Assembly: GCF_000332075.2 (NCBI RefSeq)
Contig: NZ_ALVU02000001.1
Span: 1,755,193-1,819,192 of the forward strand
Direction: 5' to 3'
From: Synechocystis sp. PCC 7509
GTDB lineage: Bacteria; Cyanobacteriota; Cyanobacteriia; Cyanobacteriales; Chroococcidiopsidaceae
Length of the DNA stretch: 64,000 nucleotides
Both the position numbers and the translations under genes were made by a program. Below the pieces are notes generated by a model. The model was not told the DNA's origin, made no database searches, and saw only the letters and a list, made by a program, of their open reading frames with translations. This document shows positions 3,801 through 17,261 of the stretch, one piece after another (the first letter of the stretch is position 1; every line of letters begins with the position of its first letter).

Positions 3801-6509
3801 GCTTTTGAACCAGTTTTGACCGGAAACTTGCAAGTTGCGACAAGTAGCGGCGTAAATTTAGAAGTTAAAGGCAATAGCGATCGCATTGCTCTAAATTTAG
3901 ATACTAACTATTTCCCCAATTCTTTTACCCTACAACGCGATCGCGCTGTAGCCACTGGTCGCACTAGCGGCGAAAATCTCTTAGTAAATATCGAAAACTT
4001 CCCCTTAGCAATATTAAAATTGCGCTTGCCAAATACGGTTTTAGGCTCTGAACCTGTAGCAGGGTTGCTAACTGGAGATTTTACTATAAATAAACAAACC
4101 TTTGCCGTTGCTGGAAATGTAGCTATTTCTCAACCTGTTTTAGGACGACTTAAAGGTGAAGAATTTACCGGAGGATTTGCTTATAACAACGGCGCTGTAA
4201 GTTTAACGGATGCGCGATTTAAAATTGGGGAAAGCCTGTATGCAGCCACCGGAAGCTACGCTCCCAATGCTTCGGGCGCTCCTGAAGTTAAAGGTCAACT
4301 CAAAGTTACGAAAGGAAAAGTAACAGATGCGATCGCCGCTTTCCAATTAATTAGTTTACAAAATTCTCAAGGGGAAGTATCGCCAACTCCAGGAGGCGCA
4401 AATAGTCTCAATACTGAACCTGTAGGTTTGCCGGGAGCAACTTTGCTTGCTCAATTGCGCCGCTACTCCGAGATTAATATGCTACTTCAGCTACAGCAGC
4501 AACAGCGTCGTACTAATTCCCCAGCCATCCCCAAACTTGAAGACTTAGAGGGCATTTTTAACGCAGACATTGCTATTAATGGCTCTGTACCCAACGGTCT
4601 ATCAGTAAAGTTTGACATCGACGGCACAGACTGGAAATTAGGTAACTACTACACTGCCAATCAAGTAATTGCTCAAGGTAGCTTTATGGGTGGAGTTTTA
4701 ACTTTTGCACCTTTGCGCCTGCAATCAGACCAATCTTTAGTCGCCTTTAGCGGTCAAATTGGCGGCACAAGGCAAGCGGGACAATTGCAAGTTAATAATT
4801 TTCCCCTAGAGGCGCTCAATAGTTTTGTGAAATTGCCTATAGATGTAACCGGCAACTTAAATGCTCAAGCAACTTTAACAGGTCAACTTACCAACCCCCA
4901 AGTAGCAGGCAACCTGAGTTTAATAAATGGTACTCTCAACCGAAAAGTAATTAATAGCGCTGCTGCTAATTTTGGTTACAACAATGCTCGATTGAGCTTC
5001 GATAGCACGATCGAAGTAGATAGTCCTGAACCCGTAACAATTAGCGGTAACGTCCCTGTACCATTACCTTTTGTAACCGTCAAAAGTAAAAGCGATCGCA
5101 TTACCCTCGATATCAACGTTCAAGACTCTGGTTTAGCCTTGCTCAATCTATTTACTGACCAAATAGCTTGGCAAAGTGGACAAGGCAAAGTTCAACTCCA
5201 AGTCCGAGGGACTCTCAACCAACCTGTTGCTACAGGTGTTGCTACGGTAAGTAATGCTACTTTTACCGCTCAAGCTTTGCCCGAACCTTTAACCAATGTC
5301 AATGGTAGTATAGACTTTGATTTTGACCGTCTTCAAGTTGAAAACCTCCAAGGCAATTTTTCTCAAGGTCAAGTAGTCGCTGCGGGTGTTCTGCCTATTT
5401 TTAGAAGTTTGGTTGCCAATGACCCCGATTTGAGCAATCCTTTGACTTTTAACTTAGATAAGTTGGCTCTCAATCTCAAAGGACTTTACCGAGGTGGTGC
5501 TAGTGGCAATGTAGTTGTCAAAGGAGCCGTCCTTAGTCCAGTAATTGGCGGTGAAGTGCTGTTAGCTGATGGTCAGGTATTGTTAGGCGAAACCCAAGGA
5601 ACTACACCTTCCTCTAGTCAACAAGTTGCCAATTCTTTACGCCCAGCTACTGCAAATCAAGCTTCGGCTTCGCCAGAGTTTAATAATTTGCAGCTAACTC
5701 TCGGCGATAATATTGCCATTACCCGTCAACCCATCTTACAATTTCAGGCAGGCGGTACTCTTACTCTCAATGGCTCGTTAGACGATATTCGCCCCCAAGG
5801 TAACATTCGCTTACGTAGTGGCGGCATAAATTTGTTTACTACCCAATTTGTCCTCGCGCGCGGCTACGAAAATCAAGCAACTTTTATCCCCGATCGCGGA
5901 CTAGACCCTACTCTTGATGTCCGCTTGGTGGCTAGAGTTCCCGAAGTTACTCAATCAAGAGTTCCTTCTTCGCCGATTTCGTCGGAAATTAGCGAAACTT
6001 TAGCTACCGATTTTGGATCTCTGCGTACCGTGCGCGTTCAAGCTAGAGTTCAAGGTCCCGCTAGTCAAATCTTTGACAACTTAGAATTAACTAGCGACCC
6101 CAACCGCAGTCAAAACGAAATTATCGCCCTAATTGGTGGTGGATTTGTAGATACTCTAGGACGTGGTGACAGTACCTTAGGGTTAGCCAATTTAGCAGGC
6201 TCGGCAATCTTAGGCAATTTTCAAGGTACGTTTAGCCGAATTGGTAATGCTATTGGCTTAGATGAATTGCGTTTATTTCCCACCGTTACGACTTCGGAGG
6301 AATCGCGCAACTCTACATTGGGATTAGCGGCGGAAGGTAATGTGGATCTTTCTAACAATCTTTCGGTGTCGGTGTTAAGAATCCTTACCACTAACGAACC
6401 TACTCAATTTGGTTTAAGTTATCGGTTAAGCGATCGCGTCCGCATTCGTGCTTCCACAAACCTAAATGCTGAAAGTTTGGCAATATTTGAATACCAAAAC
6501 AATTTTTGA
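882..6509 (+). CDS. TamB-like (DUF490) translocation/assembly module protein
   Basis: Very large (1875 aa) envelope protein of the TamB/AsmA-like superfamily. One N-terminal membrane anchor (about residues 20-50, rich in Leu/Trp) is followed by beta-rich periplasmic sequence and a C-terminal TamB (DUF490) domain that ends in a phenylalanine (FEYQNNF), as outer-membrane-associated proteins often do. Family members form long hydrophobic grooves that bridge the envelope and act in outer-membrane protein assembly or lipid transport. GGAGG at 874-878, four bases before the ATG at 882, fixes that start over an upstream in-frame GTG at 870. A block of tandem ~71-residue repeats lies near residues 580-860. 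No TamA/Omp85 partner is adjacent, as is usual in cyanobacteria. Confidence 0.88.
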   Translation: MTKLSKPDSQTTSKSRQRFWFILLGRTGIYLGIPLLIGTVGGAWWLWVFVQERLAPIVQTNLIQTLNRDVQLGQVERVSLTSLRFGKSAIPATKSDRDRAAVDAVEVKFDLWQLAFTRTLKLDITLINPDVYIDQDSTGHWIATTVASQESEGAFKTQLDNIRVQNANVVLAPNIQTKGKNQVQINISNGSAQLLENNQLVKYNLNGQFATKGSISIQGETRPKTEATNIQLRAQDVLASEVTRLIKLPLELQAGRVSGNLKVQSQPQQPTLLFGTVNLNSVTAQVRQLPQAFNKANGTLRFKDTLIGLDKITTSYGLIAATANGSLDTQRGYNISAVAPSVTIALAQKTLKLELPVPVSGTVRANVQLVGALETPILSGTVVNTKTTRIDKVNFSKIRSEFAFAPAKSVIALRNIQAIPAAGGQITGNGIIKLGKTPQLGFDTVARNIPGDAIARLYNVSPQFKLGRVSAKTLVGGKVGNLQTIVNWQAPQASYPGSGQIVINNADTFTFRNTRLSVAGGAVQAAGSLEDGVLKASVIADKVRLGQITSVPPALQAPLSGRFNVSGAINSLTAETLTAEGVGQLAIGGGTVTATNIQLNKGNWQAVVRPQNVQLGSLVEVPPQLRNGRLTGAFNAAGTTASFQPKAIALAGIGRLNIGGGTVVATNIRLNQGNWQAVVRPQNVRLGSLVEVPPQFRNGRLTAIFKAAGTTASFQPKAIAATGIGRLKIAEGTVTATNIQLNKGNWQALVQAQAVQLQQIVPTEVPPQFRGRVSGVFQAAGTTESFELNAISATGRGQLNAASGTIVATNIALNKGNFQALASPSQLQLSQFSPDLRGRLNGQLQVTGNVAAFSLAGVKAQGQVRLSQGVSLVTQPLTAAIEWDGRKITVLRATSADTLASGVVFVNPQIPAIESLNLQVQAKNYALQDLPFELPNNVNLAGRGDFAGRISGTLPTPNVVGAVRLRNLVVNNLAFEPVLTGNLQVATSSGVNLEVKGNSDRIALNLDTNYFPNSFTLQRDRAVATGRTSGENLLVNIENFPLAILKLRLPNTVLGSEPVAGLLTGDFTINKQTFAVAGNVAISQPVLGRLKGEEFTGGFAYNNGAVSLTDARFKIGESLYAATGSYAPNASGAPEVKGQLKVTKGKVTDAIAAFQLISLQNSQGEVSPTPGGANSLNTEPVGLPGATLLAQLRRYSEINMLLQLQQQQRRTNSPAIPKLEDLEGIFNADIAINGSVPNGLSVKFDIDGTDWKLGNYYTANQVIAQGSFMGGVLTFAPLRLQSDQSLVAFSGQIGGTRQAGQLQVNNFPLEALNSFVKLPIDVTGNLNAQATLTGQLTNPQVAGNLSLINGTLNRKVINSAAANFGYNNARLSFDSTIEVDSPEPVTISGNVPVPLPFVTVKSKSDRITLDINVQDSGLALLNLFTDQIAWQSGQGKVQLQVRGTLNQPVATGVATVSNATFTAQALPEPLTNVNGSIDFDFDRLQVENLQGNFSQGQVVAAGVLPIFRSLVANDPDLSNPLTFNLDKLALNLKGLYRGGASGNVVVKGAVLSPVIGGEVLLADGQVLLGETQGTTPSSSQQVANSLRPATANQASASPEFNNLQLTLGDNIAITRQPILQFQAGGTLTLNGSLDDIRPQGNIRLRSGGINLFTTQFVLARGYENQATFIPDRGLDPTLDVRLVARVPEVTQSRVPSSPISSEISETLATDFGSLRTVRVQARVQGPASQIFDNLELTSDPNRSQNEIIALIGGGFVDTLGRGDSTLGLANLAGSAILGNFQGTFSRIGNAIGLDELRLFPTVTTSEESRNSTLGLAAEGNVDLSNNLSVSVLRILTTNEPTQFGLSYRLSDRVRIRASTNLNAESLAIFEYQNNF
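2622..3463 (+). repeat. Four tandem ~71-codon repeats inside the tamB-like gene
   Basis: Units begin at 2622, 2835, 3048 and 3264, each opening with G-x-G-R/Q-L and containing ATNI-x-LN-x-GN(W/F)QA, then VPPQ-x-R-x-GR in the first three, then AAGTT-SF. The first two units are 213 bp and nearly identical at the protein level (both contain NWQAVVRPQNV and GSLVEVPPQ); the third is 216 bp and the fourth is clearly diverged. Reading frame is kept throughout. This looks like recent internal duplication lengthening the beta-groove. Confidence 0.85.
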
Positions 6510-7162
6510 GTTTGTATTTATACAAAGCCTATTTATGTAAGTATTAACTTATACTTCTTGTTACTTAAAATAAAAGTAATTTTTGTTTTTCTATAAATTT
6601 TACTTGAGGGAGGCAACCCCAATCCTTAACTTCCAGACGGTTTTATAGAGCCTCCCTACGGAAACATAAATCACTTTTGTCTCCTAAAGTTTTTTAGATA
6701 CTTATAACGTGGTTAAAAAATATACATCTACCCTGAGAACAGTTTACAAAAAATTATCAGCTTTAATTAAGCTGGGTCAAAAGTTTTATTAAGGCTATGT
6801 TTTTTAAATATAAAGTAACAGTAAAGTTGTTGATTTGAGGAAGATTTATTTCATCAATATGTAATAATTTTTTTAAGAATTACTATAAAGAAAAGTTCAT
6901 TTTCTGGATACTAATATCTCTAGTTTTCCTTGTATTCTCTGCATTTGGGAAGTTCAAGCAATACTTAATTTAATTCTAATGAGGGGTTGACAACTAAAAT
7001 AAAATCTGTAAAAAACAGTGTCTAGATCGCAATTAGTTATTTAAAAATTAAATAGTAATTAATGCAATTAAATGATTAAACAACTAACTAGAAATAGACA
7101 GAAAATTAGCAAATAGCAGGCTGACTAGGTTATTGTATCCACTTGTAACAGGAGTAAAGATT
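6510..7162. other. AT-rich intergenic region with one long-range inverted repeat
   Basis: About 650 bases with no credible gene. At 6607-6614 AGGGAGGC is complementary to GCCTCCCT at 6650-6657 across a 35-base loop; this could form a hairpin at the 3' end of the tamB-like transcript. A TTGACA at 6987-6992 resembles a -35 box for the downstream PEP-CTERM gene, but I see no good -10 at the right distance. The rest is A/T-rich without evident repeats. Confidence 0.5.
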
Positions 7163-8272
7163 GTGATTTCAGTAAAGCAGTTATCAATTGCCACCGTCGG
7201 GATTGCCCTTGGGCTAGGAAGTATTGCACCTGTTAGCGCAGCTTCTTTATATCAAATTAGCGGGTTAGATTTTACGCCATCAGATATTAACGATAGCGCT
7301 CAGGTAGTAGGAGAAAATTATTTTTGGCAAAATGGCAATGTTACGGATCTAAATACCCTTGCGGGTGCTAACAACAGCAATGTTTTCGCTAGAGCTATCA
7401 ATAATAATGGTGCGATCGTTGGCGGTGGATTAACCGTAAATGAGCCTACTACTACCCAAACGACTATACCCTTTCAAGCATTCATCTCAGATGGCAATAC
7501 AATTTCTGACTTACCCCGTAATTACTTCTGCGAATTCTCTTGTCCTACTATCACTGCTGAAGATATCAACGATTCCGGTACAATAGCACTAATTTATGAT
7601 TTTCGCGTCGGCTTAGTCCAAGAAAGCGATGGGACAACAACTGAGGTACTAGGTGCTAGACAAGTTTCCAATACTGCTATCAACAATCAAGATCAAGTAG
7701 TTGGTACTGGTATATTTAGTGGTAGTGGTAATCAGGGTATATTTGCTGAAGACGGCAACCAAACTACTCTCATAGCCAACACTTCTTCGGGCGTTGCGGG
7801 TGTACCTCAATCTGCTGCAAACGATATTAACGATTCAAGTAACATCGTTGGCAGGTCTAGTACAATTAGTTCTACTAATACAGTATTTGAGACGGCGACT
7901 TTGTGGACAGATCCTACTCAACCTGGAGTGAGTTTAGGGACATTGGGCGGTGAAAATAGCGATGCAACTGGTATCAATAACTTGATGCAAGTGGTTGGTT
8001 CTTCCTTTTTGGAAGACAACTCTACACAACACGCTTTTTTATGGGAAGAGGGCAACTTAATTGACCTCAATAGCTTGATAGATCCTGGACTAGGTTGGGA
8101 ATTAACTTCAGCTCTTGAGATTAATAGTAGTGGAGATATTATTGGAACTGGTCTTTATAACGGCGTACAGCGCGGCTTTGTGGCTAAAGCAATACCTGAA
8201 CCAAGTTCAGTTTTGGGAGTATTAGGTTTAGGATTATTTGGTCTGAGGGGATGGTTAAAGCGTAAAAAATAA
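7163..8272 (+). CDS. HAF-repeat protein with PEP-CTERM sorting signal
   Basis: Secreted protein of 369 aa. A signal peptide (about residues 1-27, ending APVSAAS) is followed by at least seven HAF-type motifs of the form (D/A/G)INxxxxxVG (DINDSAQVVG, AINNNGAIVGG, AINNQDQVVGTG, DINDSSNIVGRS, GINNLMQVVGSS, EINSSGDIIGTG), then a C-terminal PEP-CTERM tripartite tail: IPEPSS, a hydrophobic helix, and RGWLKRKK. PEP-CTERM proteins are processed by exosortases and displayed at the surface or in the extracellular matrix; a cyanoexosortase A gene lies at 46932. Start chosen as GTG 7163, preceded by AGGAG at 7150-7154; a TTG at 7133 would put ten residues before the signal peptide. The exact role is unknown. 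Confidence 0.85.
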   Translation: MISVKQLSIATVGIALGLGSIAPVSAASLYQISGLDFTPSDINDSAQVVGENYFWQNGNVTDLNTLAGANNSNVFARAINNNGAIVGGGLTVNEPTTTQTTIPFQAFISDGNTISDLPRNYFCEFSCPTITAEDINDSGTIALIYDFRVGLVQESDGTTTEVLGARQVSNTAINNQDQVVGTGIFSGSGNQGIFAEDGNQTTLIANTSSGVAGVPQSAANDINDSSNIVGRSSTISSTNTVFETATLWTDPTQPGVSLGTLGGENSDATGINNLMQVVGSSFLEDNSTQHAFLWEEGNLIDLNSLIDPGLGWELTSALEINSSGDIIGTGLYNGVQRGFVAKAIPEPSSVLGVLGLGLFGLRGWLKRKK

Positions 8273-8282
8273 TTTTAGTGTG

Positions 8283-8305
8283 AAGACGTTTCACCGAAAC
8301 GTCTT
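8283..8305. terminator. Hairpin between convergent genes
   Basis: A perfect 10-bp inverted repeat, AAGACGTTTC and GAAACGTCTT, with a 3-base loop, lies between the convergent PEP-CTERM and NB-ARC/WD40 genes. T-rich sequence follows only loosely, so it is a plausible bidirectional terminator rather than a canonical one. Confidence 0.6.
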
Positions 8306-8307
8306 TA

Positions 8308-11300
8308 CTAATTTTCTACCGCGCCTAATGCTTTTAAAGTTGATTTTTGGGCTTGAGTCAAGCCTTTGACATTGGTAATTTGCATTCCTTCGTAGGGACG
8401 AGGCGATCGCATTGACAAAAAACAATTATTCGTTTCCAAATTCCAAACTTTAATAGTTTCGTCAAAGCTGCTACTAAAAACAACTTCTTTGGGTATCGAC
8501 GCAGACATGGCTAGAGAATAAACAATTCCTGTATGTCCGCTCAACGTCTGGGTGCATTCTCCATTAAATAAATTCCACTGACGAATAGTTTGATCAAAGC
8601 TACCGCTTACTAATCGCCAATTATCGGCGGTAGGGAAAGCCATTTCTATTGGTTGATAAGAAATTGAAGTCACAGGGGCGGTATGTCCTGTTAATATATG
8701 CGTACATACTCCAGTAGCGATATTCCAGACACGGATACTACAATCAAAACTGCCACTAGCTAATTGCTGACCATCGGGACTAAAAGAAACTGCCCAAACG
8801 CTGTTAGTATGTCCTTGGAAGGTAAAAATACATTTTCCTGTGCAGACTTCCCACACTTTAACCGTTTGGTCGAAACTACTACTAGCCAAGTATTTACCAT
8901 CAGGACTAAAAGCCACCGCCGTTACTGAAGCTTTATGATCTGCCAAAGTTTGCAAGCATTTTCCGGTTTTTACTTCCCAAAGCTTGATCGTTTGATCGTA
9001 ACTAGCACTGGCTAAGTAGTTGCCATCAGGACTAAAAACCACCGACCAAACCCAACTAGAATGACCCAATATAGTCCGCAGACATTCCCCAGATTTATAA
9101 TTCCATAATTTAATCGTGCGATCGGCGCTACCTGTAGCTAAAAGCTCCTCCGTAGGCGCAAAAGCCACACTCCAAACTCGGTTAGTATGTCCGGGAATGG
9201 TTTGGTAGCATTGATTAAGGGCTAAATTCCATAACCGAATATTTTGGTCTTCGTGTCCGCTTGCTAAGAAATTACCGTCATTACTTAAAGCGATCGCCAA
9301 TACTGAATTAGTATGTCCGATAATTGTGCGATCGCATTCCCCAGTTTTAATATTCCACAACGCCGTTGCATGGTCATCGGCGCCACTAACTAACGTCCGA
9401 CTATCGGGACTAAAGGCCACACTCCAAACGCGGTTAGTATGTCCGATAAAAGTCTTGTAGCAATTCCCCGTTTGGACATCCCAAAGTTTAAGAGTTTGGT
9501 CGTAACTGCTACTAGCTAACCATCGCCCATTATTACTAAAAGTCACCGCCGTTATTACACTTGTGTGAGCGGGAATAATGTTTAAGCATTGCCTAGATTT
9601 AACATCCCACAACCTCAAAGTTTGGTCGTAGCTACCACTAGCAATCGTTTGACTATCGGGACTAAAAGCCACACTTCTCACCCAGTTTGTATGTCCTTGG
9701 AGATATTGACAATTACCCGTTGCTAAATCCCATAGTGCGATCGCCTTATCTTCCGACGCACTAGCTAGAAGTCGCCCATCGGGACTAAAAGCCACCGACC
9801 ACACGCGCTCAGAATGTCCTTGTAAGATGCGGGGAGGATTTTTAATATTTGTTAAATCCCAAAGCCTAATCTCTCGATCTTGACCGCTAGTTGCCAAAAT
9901 TCGCCCATCAGGACTAAAAGCCACCGTATTTACTGAATAAGTATGTCCTTTTAAAGTCGTTAAACATTTGCCCGTTTTTACATCCCAAAGCTTGACTAAA
10001 TAATCATCCGCCACACTTGCCAAAAATTGACCATTAGGACTAAAACAAACCGCCCAAGCCCAGTGTCCATGACCTTTACAAATATTTAACTGTCTGCCAT
10101 CACAAGCAAGCCGAATATGAATATTACCACCAGTATCGCTAGTGGCGACTAATTGACCATCAGGACTAAAAGCAACACAAGTAATTCCCCCAAAGGTTTC
10201 TGCAAATACACAGCGATCCATTTCGGTTTGGGTAAAGTTAAATTGATGCAGAGTTACGTTAGGTAAATAAGCTTGACGGACAGCTAAATGCGAATAATCT
10301 GTAACATTGCCTAAATCGATTTGCAGATGCCAATACAAGTTAAGCAGATTTCCGGCAACATAACCATTTTGGTAGAAAGAGTTAGCCCGTAAAGTTGGCA
10401 AAAGTTGGTCGAGATGGGCTTTCAGTAGCTGCTTATTTTCAAAAGCATTTTTCAGCGCTTCGGTTACAGGTTGCAGAATCAATCTAATTTGCGCTTCGCG
10501 GATATAGTCTTTAGCGGAAGCTTTAATTAAGGCGTAGCTATTAAGTAGTGATAATTGGTGGTGATAAATTTCGCTATAAAACTGTTTGACCAAGCATTCT
10601 GTTATGTATTCCATAACTACTGGTTGTTGGGTGCAGCCAAGAGTATTAATTTCAATTAGCGATCGCTTTTGCAGAGATTCCAGCACCTCCATTAGTTCGC
10701 GCTGGGGGATTTTGGGAAGGATGTCTGCGTGTAATTCTTGTAAAGTTACTCGTTCGCGCGCAATTGCCAACCAGCGCATTATTTGCTGTTCTAAGTCTGA
10801 CAAGCGATCGCATTGTTGTGCAAGTAAATCCCAAATATCGCCAAAAATAATCGTACCTTGGCTAATAAAGGCGCTAATACTTCCCCCAAACAAAGATTTA
10901 ATAGTAGCGGCGGCAATTTTGAGGGCTAAAGGATTACCAGCATAGCGATCGCTTAGTTCTTTTGCATCCTCTGCAAACTGCGTTAAACCAACAGAAGTAA
11001 GGATTATTTGCCCAGTTTCTTGAGCAACTCCAGCAAGAGACAGCGACTTTACCGGGAGAATATCACCTTCTCTAGCCGATAATCCGGTAGGTTTTTCTCT
11101 ACTTGTTAAGACTAAACAACTTTGATGGCGCTCGTCAGCAATGCGTCTAATTAGTTGTCCGTAACCTTCGTAGCCAGGGCGATAGTTTCCTCCTTGTTCG
11201 CAACTAGCCAAGATTGTTTCGGTATTGTCAAAGACTAACAGACAGCGTGAGGAATTGAGATATTTAATTAATAGAGAAATTTGCTCGTCAATAGTGCCAA

Positions 11301-11862
11301 GTTTTTCCCCTGCTTGCTGGTGAGAAACAAATAAAATCAAGTCAGATAGCAGCTTTTCAATAGCTGGTGCATTACGCAGACTTCGCCAAATCACAAATTC
11401 AAAATCTGTTTTTACTTGTTCGGCAATCTTCACCGCTAGAGCAGTTTTACCAATTCCGCCCATACCCAAAATTGTAACTAATCGACAGCGATCGCCTACT
11501 ATCCATTTTTGCAGAGTAGTTAATTCTTGCGATCGCCCATAAAACACTGAAACATCTATTGCTTCTCCCCAATCTTGAATCCCCGAAACTACGGGAGCAG
11601 GATTTATATTTTTTTGAGCAAAACGTTTAATAACTACCTGACAATTTTGCTTATTTACTTTTTCTCCCAAAGTCTCCGAAAGCAAAACCCACAACTTATA
11701 ACCAGTGTCTTTAATATAGCCGCAGTCGTAGCCAGAGCTTTTCGACATCTCTTGATAGGAATGACCTTGAATTGAGGAAGCCAGGACAAGGAGTTGCAGC
11801 TTATTCAATTGCTTTGGTTCTACAACTTGCTCAATAAATGCGATCGCTTCTTCAATAGTCAT
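8308..11862 (-). CDS. NB-ARC STAND ATPase with 14 WD40 repeats
   Basis: Protein of 1184 aa with three parts. Residues 1-100 form a helical region resembling the N-terminal helix-turn-helix-like domains of cyanobacterial STAND proteins. An NB-ARC ATPase follows, with Walker A GMGGIGKT at 133-140, a Walker B-like CLLVFDNTE and a later LTSREKP. The C-terminal half (~550-1160) holds 14 WD40 repeats (GH ... W/V-x-SVAFSPDG ... D-x-T-I-K-L-W-D), enough for two seven-bladed propellers. STAND proteins are ATP-driven switches in which the repeats sense a ligand and release an N-terminal effector or adaptor. The ligand cannot be inferred, and there is no caspase, TIR or nuclease domain here, so the effector would have to be a partner protein. 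Monocistronic. Confidence 0.9.
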   Translation of the reverse strand: MTIEEAIAFIEQVVEPKQLNKLQLLVLASSIQGHSYQEMSKSSGYDCGYIKDTGYKLWVLLSETLGEKVNKQNCQVVIKRFAQKNINPAPVVSGIQDWGEAIDVSVFYGRSQELTTLQKWIVGDRCRLVTILGMGGIGKTALAVKIAEQVKTDFEFVIWRSLRNAPAIEKLLSDLILFVSHQQAGEKLGTIDEQISLLIKYLNSSRCLLVFDNTETILASCEQGGNYRPGYEGYGQLIRRIADERHQSCLVLTSREKPTGLSAREGDILPVKSLSLAGVAQETGQIILTSVGLTQFAEDAKELSDRYAGNPLALKIAAATIKSLFGGSISAFISQGTIIFGDIWDLLAQQCDRLSDLEQQIMRWLAIARERVTLQELHADILPKIPQRELMEVLESLQKRSLIEINTLGCTQQPVVMEYITECLVKQFYSEIYHHQLSLLNSYALIKASAKDYIREAQIRLILQPVTEALKNAFENKQLLKAHLDQLLPTLRANSFYQNGYVAGNLLNLYWHLQIDLGNVTDYSHLAVRQAYLPNVTLHQFNFTQTEMDRCVFAETFGGITCVAFSPDGQLVATSDTGGNIHIRLACDGRQLNICKGHGHWAWAVCFSPNGQFLASVADDYLVKLWDVKTGKCLTTLKGHTYSVNTVAFSPDGRILATSGQDREIRLWDLTNIKNPPRILQGHSERVWSVAFSPDGRLLASASEDKAIALWDLATGNCQYLQGHTNWVRSVAFSPDSQTIASGSYDQTLRLWDVKSRQCLNIIPAHTSVITAVTFSNNGRWLASSSYDQTLKLWDVQTGNCYKTFIGHTNRVWSVAFSPDSRTLVSGADDHATALWNIKTGECDRTIIGHTNSVLAIALSNDGNFLASGHEDQNIRLWNLALNQCYQTIPGHTNRVWSVAFAPTEELLATGSADRTIKLWNYKSGECLRTILGHSSWVWSVVFSPDGNYLASASYDQTIKLWEVKTGKCLQTLADHKASVTAVAFSPDGKYLASSSFDQTVKVWEVCTGKCIFTFQGHTNSVWAVSFSPDGQQLASGSFDCSIRVWNIATGVCTHILTGHTAPVTSISYQPIEMAFPTADNWRLVSGSFDQTIRQWNLFNGECTQTLSGHTGIVYSLAMSASIPKEVVFSSSFDETIKVWNLETNNCFLSMRSPRPYEGMQITNVKGLTQAQKSTLKALGAVEN

Positions 11863-12042
11863 TGTCAGAAGGGGGGTAGATTATTTGTTTACTACAAAGA
11901 ATATTGTCTTGATTTCGGAAGACTTCGCCCTAAATCTAGGTTGTTTTAACCTTTTGCCCTCAAATCTCAACAATTACTGACAAAAAGCATTAAATACTGA
12001 ATTTTTCAACTTAAAATGTATATAGGTTTCTAAGATTGGCTA

Positions 12043-12258
12043 ATGGACGCTTTAACCACGAATCGAGAGCAAATTATTGAGTCAATTAAGACATTGCCAG
12101 AAGAATCTCTCGCGGAACTCATCAATTTTGTTGATTACCTTCGCTACAAATCAACCGAAAAACAGCCTCCAAAACCTAGCAGCAACTTTTTACTTTCCAT
12201 TGCAGGCTTAGGAACTTCAGTAGAGAAGGACGTTTCAGGGCGAGATGACTATAGTTGA
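12043..12258 (+). CDS. DUF2281-type antitoxin
   Basis: A 71-residue protein starting with a helical IIESIKTLPEESLAELINFV segment typical of DUF2281/VapB-like antitoxins paired with PIN toxins in cyanobacteria; the C-terminal part is the toxin-binding tail. Its last codons overlap by 14 bases the start of a VapC-type reading frame that has lost its middle. It is therefore an antitoxin whose partner is no longer functional. A possible promoter (TATATA near 12020) lies just upstream, but this is weak. Confidence 0.75.
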   Translation: MDALTTNREQIIESIKTLPEESLAELINFVDYLRYKSTEKQPPKPSSNFLLSIAGLGTSVEKDVSGRDDYS

Positions 12259-12352
12259 TACTAGCTTTCTGTTTGCACTGACCAACCTAGGCGATCGCAA
12301 TCTGTGCTTTGTGCATCCAAGACATTGTGATTACTTTGAGTTGCTGCCTTAA
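12245..12352 (+). pseudogene. VapC-like PIN toxin remnant, internally deleted
   Basis: An ATG overlapping the end of the antitoxin opens a 35-codon frame that I translated myself. Its first ~19 residues, MTIVDTSFLFALTNLGDRN, match a PIN-domain N-terminus, with the first catalytic Asp in VDTSF. Its last ~15 residues, HPRHCDYFELLP, match the C-terminal end of VapC toxins of this type. The ~90-100 residues that should lie between them, including the other acidic metal ligands, are missing without loss of frame. It cannot be an active ribonuclease. Confidence 0.72.
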
Positions 12353-12419
12353 TGGATGCGATCGCGCTTAATCTGAGCAATTACGGAGAAAGTGCGATCG
12401 TTTTAGTTTAACTACTGAC

Positions 12420-12452
12420 TTTTATCTGACTTTTTACCGACCTTTTACCGAC
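12420..12452 (+). repeat. Three tandem 11-bp repeats upstream of the hydrolase cluster
   Basis: TTTTATCTGAC, TTTTTACCGAC and CTTTTACCGAC follow one another without gaps, about 130 bases before the first amidase. An 11-bp period is one helical turn and is the arrangement bound by OmpR/PhoB-type response regulators. This could be the control site of the cluster, but no regulator gene is adjacent. Confidence 0.55.
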
Positions 12453-12584
12453 TGACAAAGCTTATATTTAACGGTTAACTTGGATTTATTCGCACTACAG
12501 CAGTCCAACTTTTTTTTGAATAGTGCGATCGTATTTACTTGTATACCGCTTGAGTAAAAAACATTTCTAATCAAAAGGATATTT

Positions 12585-13619
12585 ATGGCTAATTGGATCT
12601 TATTTGCCCGCGATTCGAGCGGTATGCCCCTGGTATCTGCCATGAATGGCGGATCTCCAGAAAACAGCCTTAGCACCAATCTCAAAGCTAATCTGATTGG
12701 ATTTCTACAACTTTTTTCGGGGGTAGGTACATTTTTAGTAGCAAAACCTAGTGGTACTGACAATGAAGTAGAATCTGTCGATCTTCTTCCGCGTACTGAT
12801 TTAGATACACCCACTAATTCTAGTGCGCTATCTAGTGCTACGTGGTTTCAATTTTTTTGTGATGATGATGGTCAACCTGTTGTAGTGGCTATGGATGGTA
12901 CTAACCCTGCTGAGTTCTACAAAGGGAATCTTAAGTTAGCCTTAATTGATTTCTTGAGCAGATACTCTAACGCTAATACTTTTCAAATTGCTCCGGCGGG
13001 TACATCAATTTCTGGGAGTGTTGCTGAATGGAAACCCTCACCACCATTGCCACCAAGTAAACATCGAGTAATGCTAGAAATTGGACATGGGCCTGGAGTT
13101 CCCTTCGATCCAGGTGCGATCGCTCATGACAGTGTAACTACAGAACATTCTCTCAATATTATTGCTGCTAATTCTGCCCGAAATGTAATTGCTAAAGCGG
13201 GTATCAACTGTACTGTTATCGATACTGTAGGAAGCTTACACGGTATTGGTTTGCAGTCATCTGGTTTTGACGTTTTTTGCAGCGTTCACCACAACTCATT
13301 TAATGGAACAGTTCAGAGAGCAGAAGCGTTTTCCCATGCGACTAAAGGTGATGGATTAGATAGCGACCTTGCTGGAATGATAGCCACAGAGCTTTCTAAG
13401 ACTCTCAGTATTCCCAATGCAGGCGCAAAGAAAGCCAAGCTAGGGGTTTTGTCGGGTGCAGAAGATACTAATGTTCGAGTTGCTGTTCTAGCGGAAGTTT
13501 ATTTTATTGACTTCAAAGGTAATGGAACATTGCCAAAACCTCACCTCAAAGATTTTTCAACTCGTGGAGGTGAAGCAATTGGTCGAGGAATTGTTGAGTG
13601 GTTAAAAAAGCACCCCTAA
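12585..13619 (+). CDS. N-acetylmuramoyl-L-alanine amidase with duplicated N-terminal module
   Basis: Protein of 344 aa. Two 50-residue modules (residues 4-53 and 87-136) share the pattern W-x2-F-x2-D-x2-G-x-P-x-V-x-AM-x-G ... NLK-x2-LI-x-FL ... TF-x2-A. I do not recognise this module; it may bind the wall or a partner. Residues 158-344 form an Amidase_3 domain with likely zinc and catalytic residues H168 (IGHGPG), E187 (TTEHS), H235 or H236 (SVHHNSFN) and E304 (LAEVYF). The enzyme would cut the MurNAc-L-Ala bond. There is no signal peptide or membrane segment. AAAGGAT at 12575-12581 supports the ATG. First of three consecutive peptidoglycan hydrolase genes on the same strand, probably one transcript. 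Confidence 0.85.
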   Translation: MANWILFARDSSGMPLVSAMNGGSPENSLSTNLKANLIGFLQLFSGVGTFLVAKPSGTDNEVESVDLLPRTDLDTPTNSSALSSATWFQFFCDDDGQPVVVAMDGTNPAEFYKGNLKLALIDFLSRYSNANTFQIAPAGTSISGSVAEWKPSPPLPPSKHRVMLEIGHGPGVPFDPGAIAHDSVTTEHSLNIIAANSARNVIAKAGINCTVIDTVGSLHGIGLQSSGFDVFCSVHHNSFNGTVQRAEAFSHATKGDGLDSDLAGMIATELSKTLSIPNAGAKKAKLGVLSGAEDTNVRVAVLAEVYFIDFKGNGTLPKPHLKDFSTRGGEAIGRGIVEWLKKHP

Positions 13620-13680
13620 TTAAAACATAGTTCAACTAGATAATTTTTGACTATTTCAACAAACAAAAGGAGATTAAAAT

Positions 13681-14430
13681 ATGAAATTTGGAATTGATAT
13701 CGGACACAATTGTCCTCCAGACACAGGCGCGAAAGGAATAGCAAAAACAGAAGATGTATTAACCAAAGATGTAGGTACTAGGCTGATGAAAAAGTTATCA
13801 GCCGCAGGTCACAGTGTAATTAATTGTACTCCTAACACTGCTGCAACAGTAGGGGAATCTCTAAGAAAAAGAGTTGATAAAGCGAATGCTAATTTGGTTG
13901 ATCTTTTTGTTTCAATTCATTTTAATGCTTTTAATGGAACAGCCAATGGATCGGAAATATTTGCCATTAGTAATACATCTAAAGCGATCGCACAATCGGT
14001 TTTGAAGGAGATTGTCAAGTTAGGATTTAAAACTAGAGGTGTAAAAAATACCGCATTTTTTGTTATTAAAAACACCTCAATGCCAGCGATTTTAGTTGAG
14101 TGTTGTTTCTGTGATTCAAAAGCAGACATGAACCTTTTTGATGCTGAAAAAATGGCAGAAGCAATTAAAGTAGGCTTAATTGGCGATTCCGTTGATACTT
14201 CCACACCTCAACCAGGCACTTTAAAAATTACTACAAAAACTGTTCTTAAACCCTCTACTGAGCAATCGTCAGAGTTGTCTCCAGAAACTTTATTTGAGAT
14301 TCATCCTGGCGATTATCCAGTGATGGATTTTCGCTATGAAGAAAGACACTACTGGATTAAATTTCCTAATAAAGACATAGGCGATCGAGATGAGCATTTT
14401 GTCTTTGATGAACACGCAAAAGTTATCTAA
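13681..14430 (+). CDS. N-acetylmuramoyl-L-alanine amidase (Amidase_3) with C-terminal extension
   Basis: Protein of 249 aa. Residues 1-170 are a compact Amidase_3 domain starting at the very N-terminus: H9 (DIGHNCPPD), E24 (KTEDVL), H80 (VSIHFNAFNG) and E140 (ILVECCFCD) occupy the zinc and catalytic positions. Residues ~178-249 are an accessory domain I do not recognise, containing PGDYPVMDFRYEERHYWIKF. No signal peptide. AAAGGAG just before the ATG is a good ribosome site. It is a different lineage from the preceding amidase (no N-terminal repeats, distinct loops) rather than a tandem duplicate. Confidence 0.85.
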   Translation: MKFGIDIGHNCPPDTGAKGIAKTEDVLTKDVGTRLMKKLSAAGHSVINCTPNTAATVGESLRKRVDKANANLVDLFVSIHFNAFNGTANGSEIFAISNTSKAIAQSVLKEIVKLGFKTRGVKNTAFFVIKNTSMPAILVECCFCDSKADMNLFDAEKMAEAIKVGLIGDSVDTSTPQPGTLKITTKTVLKPSTEQSSELSPETLFEIHPGDYPVMDFRYEERHYWIKFPNKDIGDRDEHFVFDEHAKVI

Positions 14431-14508
14431 ATATAGCTTTTTTAGAGCAAATACAAGCAAATAATCAGTATTCATACCACAGTTATTCAAGTCAAAGAGG
14501 ACAAACCT

Positions 14509-16098
14509 ATGACATTACTAGATGAATTAGTGAAGAAGTATGCTACGACAGATTTAAACACAGTTTTTAGCAAGGTTAGTACTGATGGTATCGAAATCGA
14601 TTCTACCAAAATTAATGAAATTAATTACCAACATTTGCAAGAAGTTACTCTAGCTCAATGGCTATTAGAATCAGGTAGAGCAAGTAGTAAGCTCTCTATT
14701 GAAGCTAACAACTTTGCAGGTTTAAAATGGCGACCTGAGATGAACGGCTTCGCTACTAAAATTAACATTTTAGTTCCTTCTGAACCTACATCAGTTGATT
14801 TTTGTAAGTTTGATAGTGTTGATGCTTTTATTATTGGTTACTGGAGGTTTTTGGCTCGTTCTACCTATGATGGTTTAGAAGCACATACTAATTCCCCAGA
14901 TACTTTCATTGGGTTTTTACAACGTAAGGGATATGCCGCCGATCTTGACTATGTTAACAAAGTAATTCGCCTGCTTCCAGAAGCCCACGCGCTATTCGTC
15001 AAAGCAAACGGTATTGTTATTCCTGCTGTACCAGCAAGACTCCAAGTTACCCACTTTCCTCAAGAAGTTGAACTAAGACAAAGTTTCAGAGTTAAAGGAG
15101 TAGCATCAACCACCGATAAAGGTAAAGTTGTCTTGATTAAAATAGATGACCGCTTCGATGCTCAAGGAACTCTTATTAATGAGGATGGCAAATGGCAAGC
15201 TGATTTAGTATTTACTTCTTTGTTTACTCCTAATGGTGTACGCAGAGTCACGTTTTCTATAGGTAGTGAAAGCGTAAATATTCAAATTAAAGCAACTACT
15301 CCTATCGATGCTGATGACGAGCCAGACACAGCACAACCTTCAGGCTCAATTAAAATTGATCTAAGTGGAAGTGTAGGCTCTGGTGGAGTCAACAAAGAAA
15401 AAGATGTTATAGCTGTTAAAAAACGTCTACACGATCTTGGTTACACTTGGGTGGGCGATCCTAATAATAAAACCATAACAACTGGCACAGTTCAAGCAAT
15501 TAAATTATTTCAATCTATTGTTGCTGGTCGTAGCACCCTTGCAGGTGATGGGCGAATTGATATTGGCGGCCCTACACATCGGTGGTTGCAAGCAGCTAAT
15601 GCTCCAGTTTGGCAAACAATGCCAGCAAGCGATTCATCAGTTGGTTTTGTCAACCATGAAAAAGATCAAACTGGTGACGATCATGACTTTGGCACAAATT
15701 GGTTAGCTGATACCATCAAAGCTATTGCTAAGGATTTTCAAACTAGCCATCGAACTTCTAATCCCGGTGCTGCGCCTTTTGCCCTCAATGATATCAGTCG
15801 CCCACATGGAGGTGATACGCCCGATCATGCTGGACACGAAACTGGTTTAATGTGTGATGTCTTTTTACCAAGAAAAGATGGAAAATTCGGCGGTATTGAT
15901 TTTACGAGTCGAGATTACGATCAAAATGCTACGCGCGCTTTGATTAAATCTATACGTAAGCAAAAACTAGTAAGGGCTGTTTTCTTCAACGATCCAACGC
16001 TAAGAGGTGAGACGTTCATGGGTATTAAACTATGTACTTTTTCGCCTGGTCATCATCACCACATTCACTTTGAAATTAACCCACCAGTAAGAACTTAA
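14509..16098 (+). CDS. Multidomain peptidoglycan hydrolase: glucosaminidase plus LAS-type peptidase
   Basis: Protein of 529 aa. Residues ~1-170 are a glucosaminidase (GH73-like) domain with QWLLESGRASS; E54 is the likely catalytic acid, followed by NNFAGLKW. Residues ~175-265 are beta-rich and Ig-like. Residues ~285-370 resemble a peptidoglycan-binding repeat (VKKRLHDLGY ... GTVQAIKLFQ ... GRIDIGGPTHRWL). Residues ~385-529 contain H443-x6-D450 (HETGLMCD) and H518-x-H520 (HHIHFEI), the zinc-ligand pattern of LAS metallopeptidases (M15/M74-like). One chain would thus cut both glycan and peptide bonds. No signal peptide. It follows the two amidases with a 78-base gap and an AGAGGA-type ribosome site. 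Confidence 0.8.
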   Translation: MTLLDELVKKYATTDLNTVFSKVSTDGIEIDSTKINEINYQHLQEVTLAQWLLESGRASSKLSIEANNFAGLKWRPEMNGFATKINILVPSEPTSVDFCKFDSVDAFIIGYWRFLARSTYDGLEAHTNSPDTFIGFLQRKGYAADLDYVNKVIRLLPEAHALFVKANGIVIPAVPARLQVTHFPQEVELRQSFRVKGVASTTDKGKVVLIKIDDRFDAQGTLINEDGKWQADLVFTSLFTPNGVRRVTFSIGSESVNIQIKATTPIDADDEPDTAQPSGSIKIDLSGSVGSGGVNKEKDVIAVKKRLHDLGYTWVGDPNNKTITTGTVQAIKLFQSIVAGRSTLAGDGRIDIGGPTHRWLQAANAPVWQTMPASDSSVGFVNHEKDQTGDDHDFGTNWLADTIKAIAKDFQTSHRTSNPGAAPFALNDISRPHGGDTPDHAGHETGLMCDVFLPRKDGKFGGIDFTSRDYDQNATRALIKSIRKQKLVRAVFFNDPTLRGETFMGIKLCTFSPGHHHHIHFEINPPVRT

Positions 16099-16114
16099 GT
16101 ATACAAGATTTAGA

Positions 16115-16165
16115 AAAGGGCGATCGCATCACATTTCCTAATAATAAATCAAAGCGATCGCCTTT
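16115..16165. terminator. Long-stem hairpin built from two HIP1 sites
   Basis: AAAGG-GCGATCGC (16115-16127) and GCGATCGC-CTTT (16154-16165) can pair over 12 bp with one bulged G across a 26-base loop, between the last hydrolase and the membrane-protein gene. It could be a transcription terminator or simply two facing HIP1 octamers. Confidence 0.4.
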
Positions 16166-16265
16166 ATATCCAATAATACTTGCACTGTATTAGGGCATAG
16201 CTGGGGAGATACAGTTTAACCAACCTATAACCTTTTATACATTATGATTTTGAGGAGATTTTATT

Positions 16266-17261
16266 ATGCGTTACCGAATGATACCTCTGTTCGCTCTTGT
16301 ACTATGTTTTGTGTTTACTACGAAGGTTAATGCATCTAGCGTCAACACACCATATTGCCAACGTACTAAAGACTCCTCGATAACTGCAAAAATTGAGAGC
16401 ATCAGTATGGATCGATCTGCAATGCAAATCCGATGTCGTCAAGACAAAAGTTTCATAAACCCTACCATCACAATCGCAGATCCCGCACTTCAAGCTGCTG
16501 TGCAACACTTTGGGGAAGGTGACCAAGTTGTCTTAGAGTATAAGACAGAAAATGAAAAAAACATTCTTCAAAACTTGTCTGTGAAGACACAAGAGTTGGG
16601 GTTGTGGCTTCGTATAGGGACACTCATAGGCTTCTGTCTCCTGCTTTTGTTGGTCTTCCGGTTTTTCCTGCAAAATGGATTGTGGAATCTTATTGTCGGC
16701 ATAGACAATCGCTACAGTAATTCCAAAACTCAAATCGTGCTTTGGTTTTTCATCTTAATAACTACTTATATTGCCTCCATTGTGTTGCGTGGTTTGTATG
16801 GTGGCATAGATTTCGTCGGAGGAGTGTCAATTCCTCAAAACCTTCTACTTTTGTCAGGACTGAGCGCCTTGACTTTCGCCACAGCTAAAGGCATTACCCA
16901 AGACAAGTTCCCTCCGGGAAAAGAAAAACCGAAAGCTGATAAACCAAAATTTCCAGATGACCTTTTCCTAGACGATCAGCGTCGCGTAGATTTAGGTGAC
17001 TTCCAAATGATTATTATCACGTTGCTTGCTGTTTTTGTTTACCTTGCAGAAGTTCTCGGCTTTCTTGGCACGATTGAATTCCATAAGGTAGTAACTCTGC
17101 CAGATGTAGACACAACTATACTAGCGACCTTTGGTCTTGGTCAGGGAATATACCTTGCGAAAAAATTTGTGGGTGATGCAGGCGGAGGCAACCCAGTAAC
17201 TTCGCCTACCCCTGCTCTCAACACTACTCCCGATCCAAATGCTGTATCGCCGCCTCCTTAA
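16266..17261 (+). CDS. Unfamiliar four-helix membrane protein with signal peptide
   Basis: Protein of 331 aa that I cannot assign to a named family. Visible parts: a signal peptide (~1-23, ending VNASS); a ~90-residue extracytoplasmic region with two or three cysteines; four predicted membrane helices near 113-135, 155-176, 186-206 and 245-268; a charged Lys/Pro loop; and a Pro/Thr-rich tail. Conserved-looking motifs are DNRYSNSKTQ before helix 2 and TTILATFGLGQGIYLAKKF after helix 4, which I recall from uncharacterised bacterial membrane proteins. A good GAGG ribosome site precedes the ATG. It follows the three hydrolases on the same strand, which suggests but does not prove that they work together. 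Confidence 0.7.
   Translation: MRYRMIPLFALVLCFVFTTKVNASSVNTPYCQRTKDSSITAKIESISMDRSAMQIRCRQDKSFINPTITIADPALQAAVQHFGEGDQVVLEYKTENEKNILQNLSVKTQELGLWLRIGTLIGFCLLLLLVFRFFLQNGLWNLIVGIDNRYSNSKTQIVLWFFILITTYIASIVLRGLYGGIDFVGGVSIPQNLLLLSGLSALTFATAKGITQDKFPPGKEKPKADKPKFPDDLFLDDQRRVDLGDFQMIIITLLAVFVYLAEVLGFLGTIEFHKVVTLPDVDTTILATFGLGQGIYLAKKFVGDAGGGNPVTSPTPALNTTPDPNAVSPPP

What the first reader, a model, noticed from the sequence alone, without database searches (positions are those of the whole stretch)
12585..17261. Island of three signal-less peptidoglycan hydrolases plus a membrane protein
Two different amidases, a glucosaminidase/LAS-peptidase chimera and an unfamiliar four-helix membrane protein follow each other on one strand. 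None of the hydrolases has a signal peptide, so they would stay in the cytoplasm unless released by lysis or another export path. No phage structural or integrase genes are near. The island is bracketed by a broken TA pair and an orphan antitoxin. A programmed lysis, predation or contact-killing module is conceivable; this function is inferred, not shown.
Basis: partly seen in the sequence, partly recalled or inferred. Interest (0 to 1): 0.72.

Follow-up and report, generated by a model that had tools for sequence, protein, structure and literature searches.

The report
Immune-sensor-controlled cell-wall-lysing gene cassette
A cyanobacterium carries three cell-wall-cutting enzymes that lack an export signal, next to an immune-sensor-like gene switch and a likely DNA landing site for it; the same kind of switch and site recurs in other cyanobacteria in front of ever-changing sets of lysis enzymes, which looks like a built-in, inducible self-destruct or attack cassette.

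Summary
The three signal-less peptidoglycan hydrolases are real: A1 and A2 (Amidase_3), A3 (glucosaminidase plus M74/LAS-like peptidase). A protein search with a related HTH found 29 close matches in 359 genomes; all 29 loci hold a direct-repeat site (CTCAC-YTTTT-CTCAC-YGACA, at most 3 mismatches), and 45 of 46 sites lie upstream of the HTH gene pointing away from it. Behind the sites, 24 of 29 loci carry wall-lytic enzymes, 5 a holin- or SLATT-like protein; in one genus the same locus holds different cargo in different species. Among 21 A3 loci the site persists with an intact HTH gene (11/11) and mostly decays without (2/10). The window has a variant repeat array (12415-12461) between STAND and A1, rare genome-wide, but its HTH lies outside the main clade, so its assignment is indirect. 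Best reading: a STAND transcription switch with its own operator driving a variable lysin operon, probably for programmed lysis. The regulatory unit is well supported by comparison; binding and lysis are inferred.

The parts
8308..11862 (-). STAND regulator: N-terminal HTH (about residues 1-90), NB-ARC, then WD40 repeats; 1184 aa; divergent to the hydrolases
12043..12258 (+). DUF2281 antitoxin-like gene lying between regulator and lysins; not thought to be part of the mechanism
   Evidence: Pfam DUF2281 3.7e-7
12245..12352 (+). 35-aa ORF, probable remnant of a PIN (VapC-like) toxin
   Evidence: translation; identity as PIN start is recalled, not from a call
12415..12461 (+). Candidate operator: four 11-bp-spaced copies of C[TC]GAC (12415, 12426, 12437, 12448) ending in CTTTTACCGACTGACAAAGC, pointing at A1
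   Evidence: sequence; tandem repeat 12419-12452; only hits of a generalised pattern in 64 kb; 12442-12461 single match in window and genome; patterns written after seeing the array
12585..13619 (+). A1: two N-terminal repeats of about 75 aa (by eye) plus Amidase_3; no hydrophobic N-terminus
   Evidence: full-length relative (66%) behind a perfect site in G434, L161
13681..14430 (+). A2: Amidase_3 with small C-terminal region; no hydrophobic N-terminus
14509..16098 (+). A3: glucosaminidase, beta domain, PG-binding-like, M74/LAS-like peptidase; no hydrophobic N-terminus
16266..17261 (+). MP: membrane protein with N-terminal hydrophobic segment and further TM segments; sits where G542 has a SLATT-like gene; membership uncertain
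   Evidence: structure model too poor to use

Best explanation
A STAND-switched lysin operon. An NLR-like HTH-NB-ARC-WD40 protein senses something through its WD40 repeats (inferred), oligomerises with ATP like other STAND proteins (family knowledge), and through its HTH binds an iterated 10-11-bp direct-repeat operator beside its own gene (supported by comparison, not assayed), so controlling the divergent operon. The operon encodes peptidoglycan-cutting enzymes with no sign of a signal peptide (shown). They would reach the wall only once the inner membrane is breached; some related cassettes bring their own holin-like or SLATT-like membrane protein (5 of 29). The likely outcome is rapid lysis of the producing cell, as a suicide response to phage or damage, with lysins and, in some cassettes, a chloroperoxidase, DyP peroxidases or a lipase released around it (inferred). 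Confidence by step: conserved regulator-site-cargo unit in the main clade about 0.9; window belongs to the same kind about 0.8; HTH protein acts as transcription regulator about 0.8; programmed lysis rather than another use about 0.5.
For: 29 of 29 HTH-clade loci hold a site at most 3 mismatches from the motif; 45 of 46 sites are upstream of the HTH gene and point away from it; reversed-motif control 0 in the same 486 kb. Eighteen of the 29 played no part in finding the motif: 18 of 18 have a site, 17 of 18 upstream and pointing away. Motif at most 2 mismatches: 24 sites in 16 of 386 genomes, reversed control 5 sites. Motif shared by loci of families f2, f12, f15, f16, f31, f33. Of 21 A3 loci, intact HTH goes with a site in 11 of 11, absent or broken HTH in 2 of 10; Fisher p 2.2e-4, not tree-corrected. 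HTH model (pLDDT 88) aligns with LuxR/NarL-type DNA-binding domains, Z 8.5 for RcsB and 8.2 for NarL, and with sigma region 4. Cargo: wall-lytic enzymes in 24 of 29 loci; holin PHROG 8e-8, SLATT_5 4.7e-6; eight loci of one genus share both flanking genes but hold different cargo. Window: divergent STAND; array in the right place; relatives of A1, A2 and A3 all found behind motif sites elsewhere.
Against: The window's HTH is outside the supported clade and unresolved in the tree. The window array scores poorly with the clade PWM: best rank 18 of 127,962 for the 20-bp core, 100 and 47 for the longer versions, and 16 of 27, reached by 23 of 100 shuffles. The patterns that make it unique were written after seeing it. 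Four of 29 clade loci have other cargo (methylase, chloroperoxidase, alpha/beta hydrolase, DyP) and one is undetermined. 24 of 29 lack a recognised holin or SLATT. Microcystis has the lysins with no HTH found and no site. The HTH proteins of several Nostocaceae are HTH-only or HTH-Uma2, without the STAND part. Only 3 of 34 HTH genes outside the clade have a generalised repeat upstream. No expression, binding or lysis data.
Confidence: 0.55

Rival explanations
1. Weapon released on lysis or by an unknown export route: the enzymes act on other cells (competitors, parasites, predators), with peroxidases as further weapons; the STAND protein triggers production when the invader is sensed.
For: Cargo includes vanadium chloroperoxidase (L163), DyP (L170, L174) and lipase (L156), more than a cell needs to lyse itself; SLH domains on a GHL10 protein next to an amidase in L090.
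Against: No hydrophobic N-terminus in 28 cargo enzymes picked for the check; holin/SLATT partners fit self-lysis. No search for secretion genes was made.
Confidence: 0.22
2. Ordinary developmental wall remodelling (filament breakage, akinete or hormogonium formation) under a STAND-type transcription factor, comparable to MalT-type regulation (recalled).
For: A related amidase of mostly 306-333 aa without signal peptide is common in family f33; many hosts are filamentous (recalled).
Against: Cargo differs between close relatives at one and the same locus, one related cluster lies on a plasmid, and cargo includes phage-type lysozymes and a holin-like protein, unlike conserved developmental genes.
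Confidence: 0.13
3. Remnant of a prophage lysis region.
For: PHROG endolysin matches for A1, A2, A3 and for several other cargo proteins, plus one holin.
Against: 25 kb around the island has no near match in 50,697 phage records; A3 has 1 partial match in phage records and 2 partial in viral contigs; A2-A3 sits between the same host genes in many Nostocaceae loci. Neighbours were only partly tested against phage families.
Confidence: 0.05
4. The first reader's four-gene module with the 16266 membrane protein as its own holin-like part.
For: Position right after A3, where G542 has a SLATT-like gene; TM segments; no terminator-like site found in the 167-bp gap.
Against: No match in 59 of 60 genomes searched, the one being the window genome; its only relative found (41%) has no hydrolase annotated nearby; no holin-family match.
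Confidence: 0.05

Closest known systems
NTP-dependent conflict systems of multicellular prokaryotes, incl. EAD1/trypsin/STAND operons (Kaur et al. 2020, PMC7159879; passages seen)
   Same: NTPase-based sensors in similar bacteria; the passage names EAD1-linked lysozyme-like and papain-like peptidoglycan peptidase domains as likely attackers of peptidoglycan, some operons with a STAND NTPase
   Different: There effectors are joined to the system by EAD domains; here lysins are separate genes that seem tied to the sensor by a DNA site. The passages seen describe no HTH-NB-ARC-WD40/operator/lysin unit
Sigma70-type domains with NB-ARC and WD40 in cyanobacteria (PMC11119718; passages seen)
   Same: The paper lists NB-ARC and WD40 among accessory domains of cyanobacterial sigma70-like proteins; our HTH resembles sigma region 4 and LuxR types
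   Different: Treated there as sigma factors; no target genes or operator in the passages seen
alp programmed cell death pathway of Pseudomonas aeruginosa (PMC7969949; search listing and start of abstract)
   Same: A regulator switches on cell death in a subset of cells after DNA damage
   Different: AlpA is an antiterminator; absence of a STAND protein and of a multi-lysin operon is recalled, not checked
Avs/bNACHT antiphage STAND proteins (as summarised in PMC10907252; passages seen)
   Same: STAND core with C-terminal sensor repeats; cell death as outcome
   Different: Effector is fused N-terminally and acts directly; here the N-terminus models as a DNA-binding fold
MalT/AfsR-type STAND transcription activators (recalled)
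   Same: STAND ATPase joined to a DNA-binding HTH
   Different: Metabolic or developmental targets, no lysin cassette (recalled)

Membership tests
Main HTH/operator/lysin clade (defined here) | HTH domain of the main clade | tested here: not met
   Window HTH not among the 29 matches below 1e-28 and unresolved outside the 98/98 clade; it belongs to the same wider HTH family. So the window is not a member of this clade, only the same kind of arrangement
Main HTH/operator/lysin clade (defined here) | Direct-repeat site in the divergent gap, pointing at cargo | tested here: inconclusive
   Variant 11-bp array in the right place and direction but poor score with the clade motif
Main HTH/operator/lysin clade (defined here) | Signal-less PG hydrolases divergent from the HTH gene | tested here: met
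STAND NTPase conflict systems | NB-ARC/NACHT core plus C-terminal sensor repeats | tested here: met
   WD40 by Pfam; NB-ARC by alignment to Pfam-positive L031
STAND NTPase conflict systems | EAD/Death-like adaptor or fused effector | tested here: inconclusive
   N-terminus models as an HTH; no dedicated EAD search was made
STAND NTPase conflict systems | Protection against phage | not testable with these tools
   No assay; the only PADLOC match, HEAT-ARM_XIII, falls on the WD40 part
SLATT effectors | SLATT domain in cassette membrane proteins | tested here: inconclusive
   L156 SLATT_5 4.7e-6, 26.5 bits against cutoff 29.5; L143, L160, L171 proteins related to it at 28-31%; L143's own has no Pfam match
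Prophage lysis cassette | Adjacent phage structural genes | tested here: inconclusive
   No near phage match for 25 kb, but most neighbours were not scanned against phage families
Holin | 16266 membrane protein related to a holin family | tested here: inconclusive
   No holin PHROG or Pfam match; model pLDDT 47.5

The most novel reading that the evidence does not exclude
A widespread bacterial self-destruct class: NLR-like STAND proteins that work as transcription switches with a private iterated operator, driving interchangeable cytosolic lysin, pore and peroxidase arsenals; a transcriptional counterpart of NLR-triggered cell death.
Probability: 0.4. Interest if true: 0.9.

Novelty: new variant of a known kind. 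Interest (0 to 1): 0.76.

Why it matters
NLR-like STAND genes are common in cyanobacteria but what they control is mostly unknown (recalled). Here one group has a clear, nearly unique DNA site and a clear product set, so the question becomes testable by binding and reporter assays. If the lysis reading holds, it would give a genetic mechanism for programmed lysis in filamentous and bloom-forming cyanobacteria, and a source of new lysins.

Tried and rejected
Four-gene module with the membrane protein: not supported (no relative in viral contigs). Structure of that protein: pLDDT 47.5, not used. Phage origin. PDB sequence search with the HTH profile gave nothing I could use; its best row (8vd6, 'CAP REPEAT', 4.1e-4) was not followed up. 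Foldseek E-values for the HTH are weak (0.35 at best), so the fold claim rests on Z values and on the listed rows being mostly DNA-binding domains. PADLOC and NCBIfam gave no defence assignment. The clade motif did not pick the window array. A generalised regex found the motif upstream of only 5 of 23 clade genes, because it demands a leading C, a strict spacer and 700 bp, and of 3 of 34 non-clade genes. Motif sites with no HTH found nearby, 8 of 14 loci fetched (L141, L144, L148, L150-L154): seven look like chance; L144 (one mismatch, the variant typical of its genus) may be a stray copy. Two further motif sites lie by HTH genes outside the clade with other neighbours: a UvrD-like helicase (L145) and Adhesin_E-like proteins (L149). 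Second-tier HTH loci: 4 of 20 with a site at most 3 mismatches; neighbours include a patatin (L175), a chloroperoxidase-like protein (L179) and a lipoxygenase-like protein (L185); no lysins by BLAST to my reference set, which is not exhaustive.

Error of mine: the reference 'A3_mid_M74' built was out of frame, so M74 domains were invisible; corrected for the sets. My note says all 46 sites point away; the recount gives 45. Lysin tally: GH24 in L147, L156, L169, L170 by BLAST to the Pfam-tested L143 lysozyme; L142 counted on a C39 peptidase with a PHROG endolysin match. In one search at most 14 candidates per genome were scored, so the 29 may be an undercount. Papers: searches listed nothing that, from titles, abstracts or the passages I opened, describes this unit; only open-licence papers are held, so this is no proof of absence.
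Full report
Observation. The ORFs are as stated. A1 and A2 are Amidase_3 proteins; A3 is a glucosaminidase with PG-binding and M74 matches below cutoff. None has a hydrophobic N-terminus, whereas 16266 has one. A2 and A3 keep their presumed catalytic positions in the relatives aligned. A2 relatives start directly with the amidase domain, so the lack of a signal peptide is inherited, not a start-site error.

Who travels with whom. A3 in 386 cyanobacterial genomes: 15 with a match at 1e-10, the window genome included; 7 full-length, the window's own included. A pattern-based scan of the 84,980-species collection: 25 loci, 21 full-length; A2 directly precedes A3 in 19 of these 21 (L094 and L108 lack it). 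A1 in 386 genomes: 4 at 1e-10, only the window full-length; a later locus, in G434, has a full-length A1 (66%) followed by A3. The 16266 protein: own genome only among 60 searched, one Gloeothece plasmid relative with no hydrolase annotated nearby. So A1, A2 and A3 belong to one pool of cassette genes and 16266 probably does not.

The missed partner. Beside A2-A3 or M74 genes in G052, G409, G078, G370 and the Nostoc plasmid pNPM5 lay proteins sharing the N-terminal domain of the window's STAND protein. In UBA8803 it is a 1221-aa HTH-NB-ARC protein with a long C-terminal part like the window's, in seven Nostoc-type loci an HTH-only protein of 91-127 aa, in Anabaena 4-3 and Trichormus HTH-Uma2. 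Such HTH domains number 3-16 per genome in seven genomes. None was found in 20 loci fetched around related amidase domains (L070-L089), while 20 HTH ORFs were found in the 64 loci.

The operator. Aligning the gaps upstream of A2 showed a conserved block, CTCACTTTTTCTCACCGACAGAGCGAT: 24-26 of 27 in the five HTH-bearing Nostocaceae loci scored, 24 in UBA8803, 24 in G370, 23 in L107 without HTH, 13-17 in five others. A 20-bp core with at most 2 mismatches occurs 24 times in 16 of 386 genomes, against 5 for the reversed pattern. In eight genomes at 3 mismatches there were 11 sites against 4 reversed; in the five genomes with sites, those at most 2 mismatches away sit only at the hydrolase/HTH locus. 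Of 14 loci fetched around further sites, six have an HTH gene beside the site (L142, L143, L145, L146, L147, L149), four of them with lysins behind it (L142, L143, L146, L147), and eight have no HTH found nearby.

Independent test. A search by HTH protein alone in 359 genomes gave 29 matches below 1e-28, then a gap to 7.2e-24. All 29 loci have a site at most 3 mismatches away; of 46 sites 45 are upstream of the HTH gene and point away from it, the exception being L173, where the only site lies beyond the other end of the gene; the reversed motif gives 0. In 25 of 29 the nearest site is 1-800 bp upstream of the HTH start; in L155, L160 and L161 1.3-2.4 kb. Eleven of the 29 were already in hand, seven from the motif's own derivation (L023, L025, L026, L027, L031 and duplicates L155, L167) and four because the motif search found them (L142, L143, L146, L147). 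The other 18 are the clean test: 18 of 18 have a site, 17 in the expected position. Among 21 A3 loci (19 Nostocaceae, UBA8803, Microcystis), intact HTH goes with a site at most 2 mismatches in 11 of 11, absent or broken HTH in 2 of 10 (related species, so the p-value of 2.2e-4 is optimistic).

The domain. The 96-residue model (pLDDT 88) aligns to LuxR/NarL-type DNA-binding domains (Z 8.5 and below) and sigma region 4. Z near 8 is modest for a small helical domain and Foldseek E-values are weak; the weight lies in nearly all top rows being DNA-binding.

The cargo. 24 of 29 clade loci carry at least one wall-lytic enzyme or C39/endolysin-type peptidase: A2-A3 (L155, L160, L167, L023, L025, L026, L027), A1-A3 (L161), A2-VanY-amidase (L164), glucosaminidase-amidase-M23 (L159), GH24 (L143, L147, L156, L169, L170), M15+GH25 (L157), amidase_2+SLT+M15 (L146), C39+GH108 (L162), muramidase (L168, L171), amidase_2+C39 (L166), M74 (L031, L165), C39 (L142) (M15 of L146 from its PHROG match). 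Other cargo: L158, L163, L173, L174; undetermined L172. Holin-like or SLATT-like proteins: L143, L156, L160, L169, L171, 5 of 29. Eight loci of genus g8 share both flanking host genes, yet hold GH25-like+C39 (L142), GH24+SLATT-like+holin-like (L143), chloroperoxidase (L163), M74+SH3 (L165), GH24+holin-like (L169), GH24+DyP (L170), C39-like+muramidase+SLATT-like (L171) or DyP (L174): one regulator locus with swapped cargo. The 28 cargo enzymes picked for the check lack a hydrophobic N-terminus (maximum 1.73, secreted controls 2.36 and 2.73).

The window. Its STAND gene is divergent, A1 starts 723 bp away, and between them lies an 11-bp array with C[TC]GAC at 12415, 12426, 12437 and 12448, pointing at A1. 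A generalised motif hits only there in 64 kb and 3 times in 548 kb of other loci; CTTTT-N3-6-ACYGACARAGC occurs once in 4.9 Mb. These patterns were written after seeing the array, so they show rarity, not prediction. The G230 STAND gene, also outside the clade, has the same CCGAC-CTTTT-CCGAC variant in the same place. The clade motif misses the array and the window HTH is outside the clade. The five other HTH genes of this genome have no lysin among the neighbours shown. I hold membership of the window in this kind at about 0.8.

Mechanism and limits. Shown by comparison: regulator, site, direction, cargo. Inferred: DNA binding, activation by a WD40-sensed cue, lysis. Nothing tells whether the switch is activator or repressor, or what it senses; many clade members have HTH-NB-ARC without WD40 or HTH alone. 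In the window the membrane-breaching step has no identified gene; 16266 is a candidate only by position.

Noticed in passing
L074-L089: An Amidase_3 protein without hydrophobic start, mostly 306-333 aa, with a PG-binding-like end in several, recurs in many genomes of family f33 in varied neighbourhoods; role unknown.
   Followed up: partly
L098:7444-13241: Microcystis novacekii MAG: GHL10, A2, A3, Amidase_2 and LysM-SLT in a row, without hydrophobic starts in those checked, no HTH and no operator found.
   Followed up: partly
L090:14128-17252 and L072:5701-8807: An SLH-GHL10 protein whose SLH domain starts at residue 6-7 (so no room for a signal peptide) stands beside an amidase in two genomes of different families.
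   Followed up: no
L070:2998-7899 and L071:6641-11707: Giant proteins joining subtilase, Amidase_3 (A1-like) and M23 or CHAP domains with DUF4114.
   Followed up: no
L158:4680-9679: A second HTH-NB-ARC gene of the UBA8803 genome has the site in front of a DUF4288/glycosyltransferase/C5-methylase run instead of lysins.
   Followed up: partly
L175:7417-8535, L179:9922-11247, L185:6694-9174: HTH genes outside the 29 stand beside patatin, chloroperoxidase-like and lipoxygenase-like genes, L179 with sites at 0 and 1 mismatch: the wider HTH family may control other toxic enzymes.
   Followed up: partly
L021 (pNPM5) 3134-16522: Nostoc plasmid with HTH-STAND followed by M74-like, GHL10, M15 and SH3 proteins and related but weaker repeats.
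   Followed up: partly
window 2640-3125: 213-bp tandem repeat, 2.3 copies.
   Followed up: no
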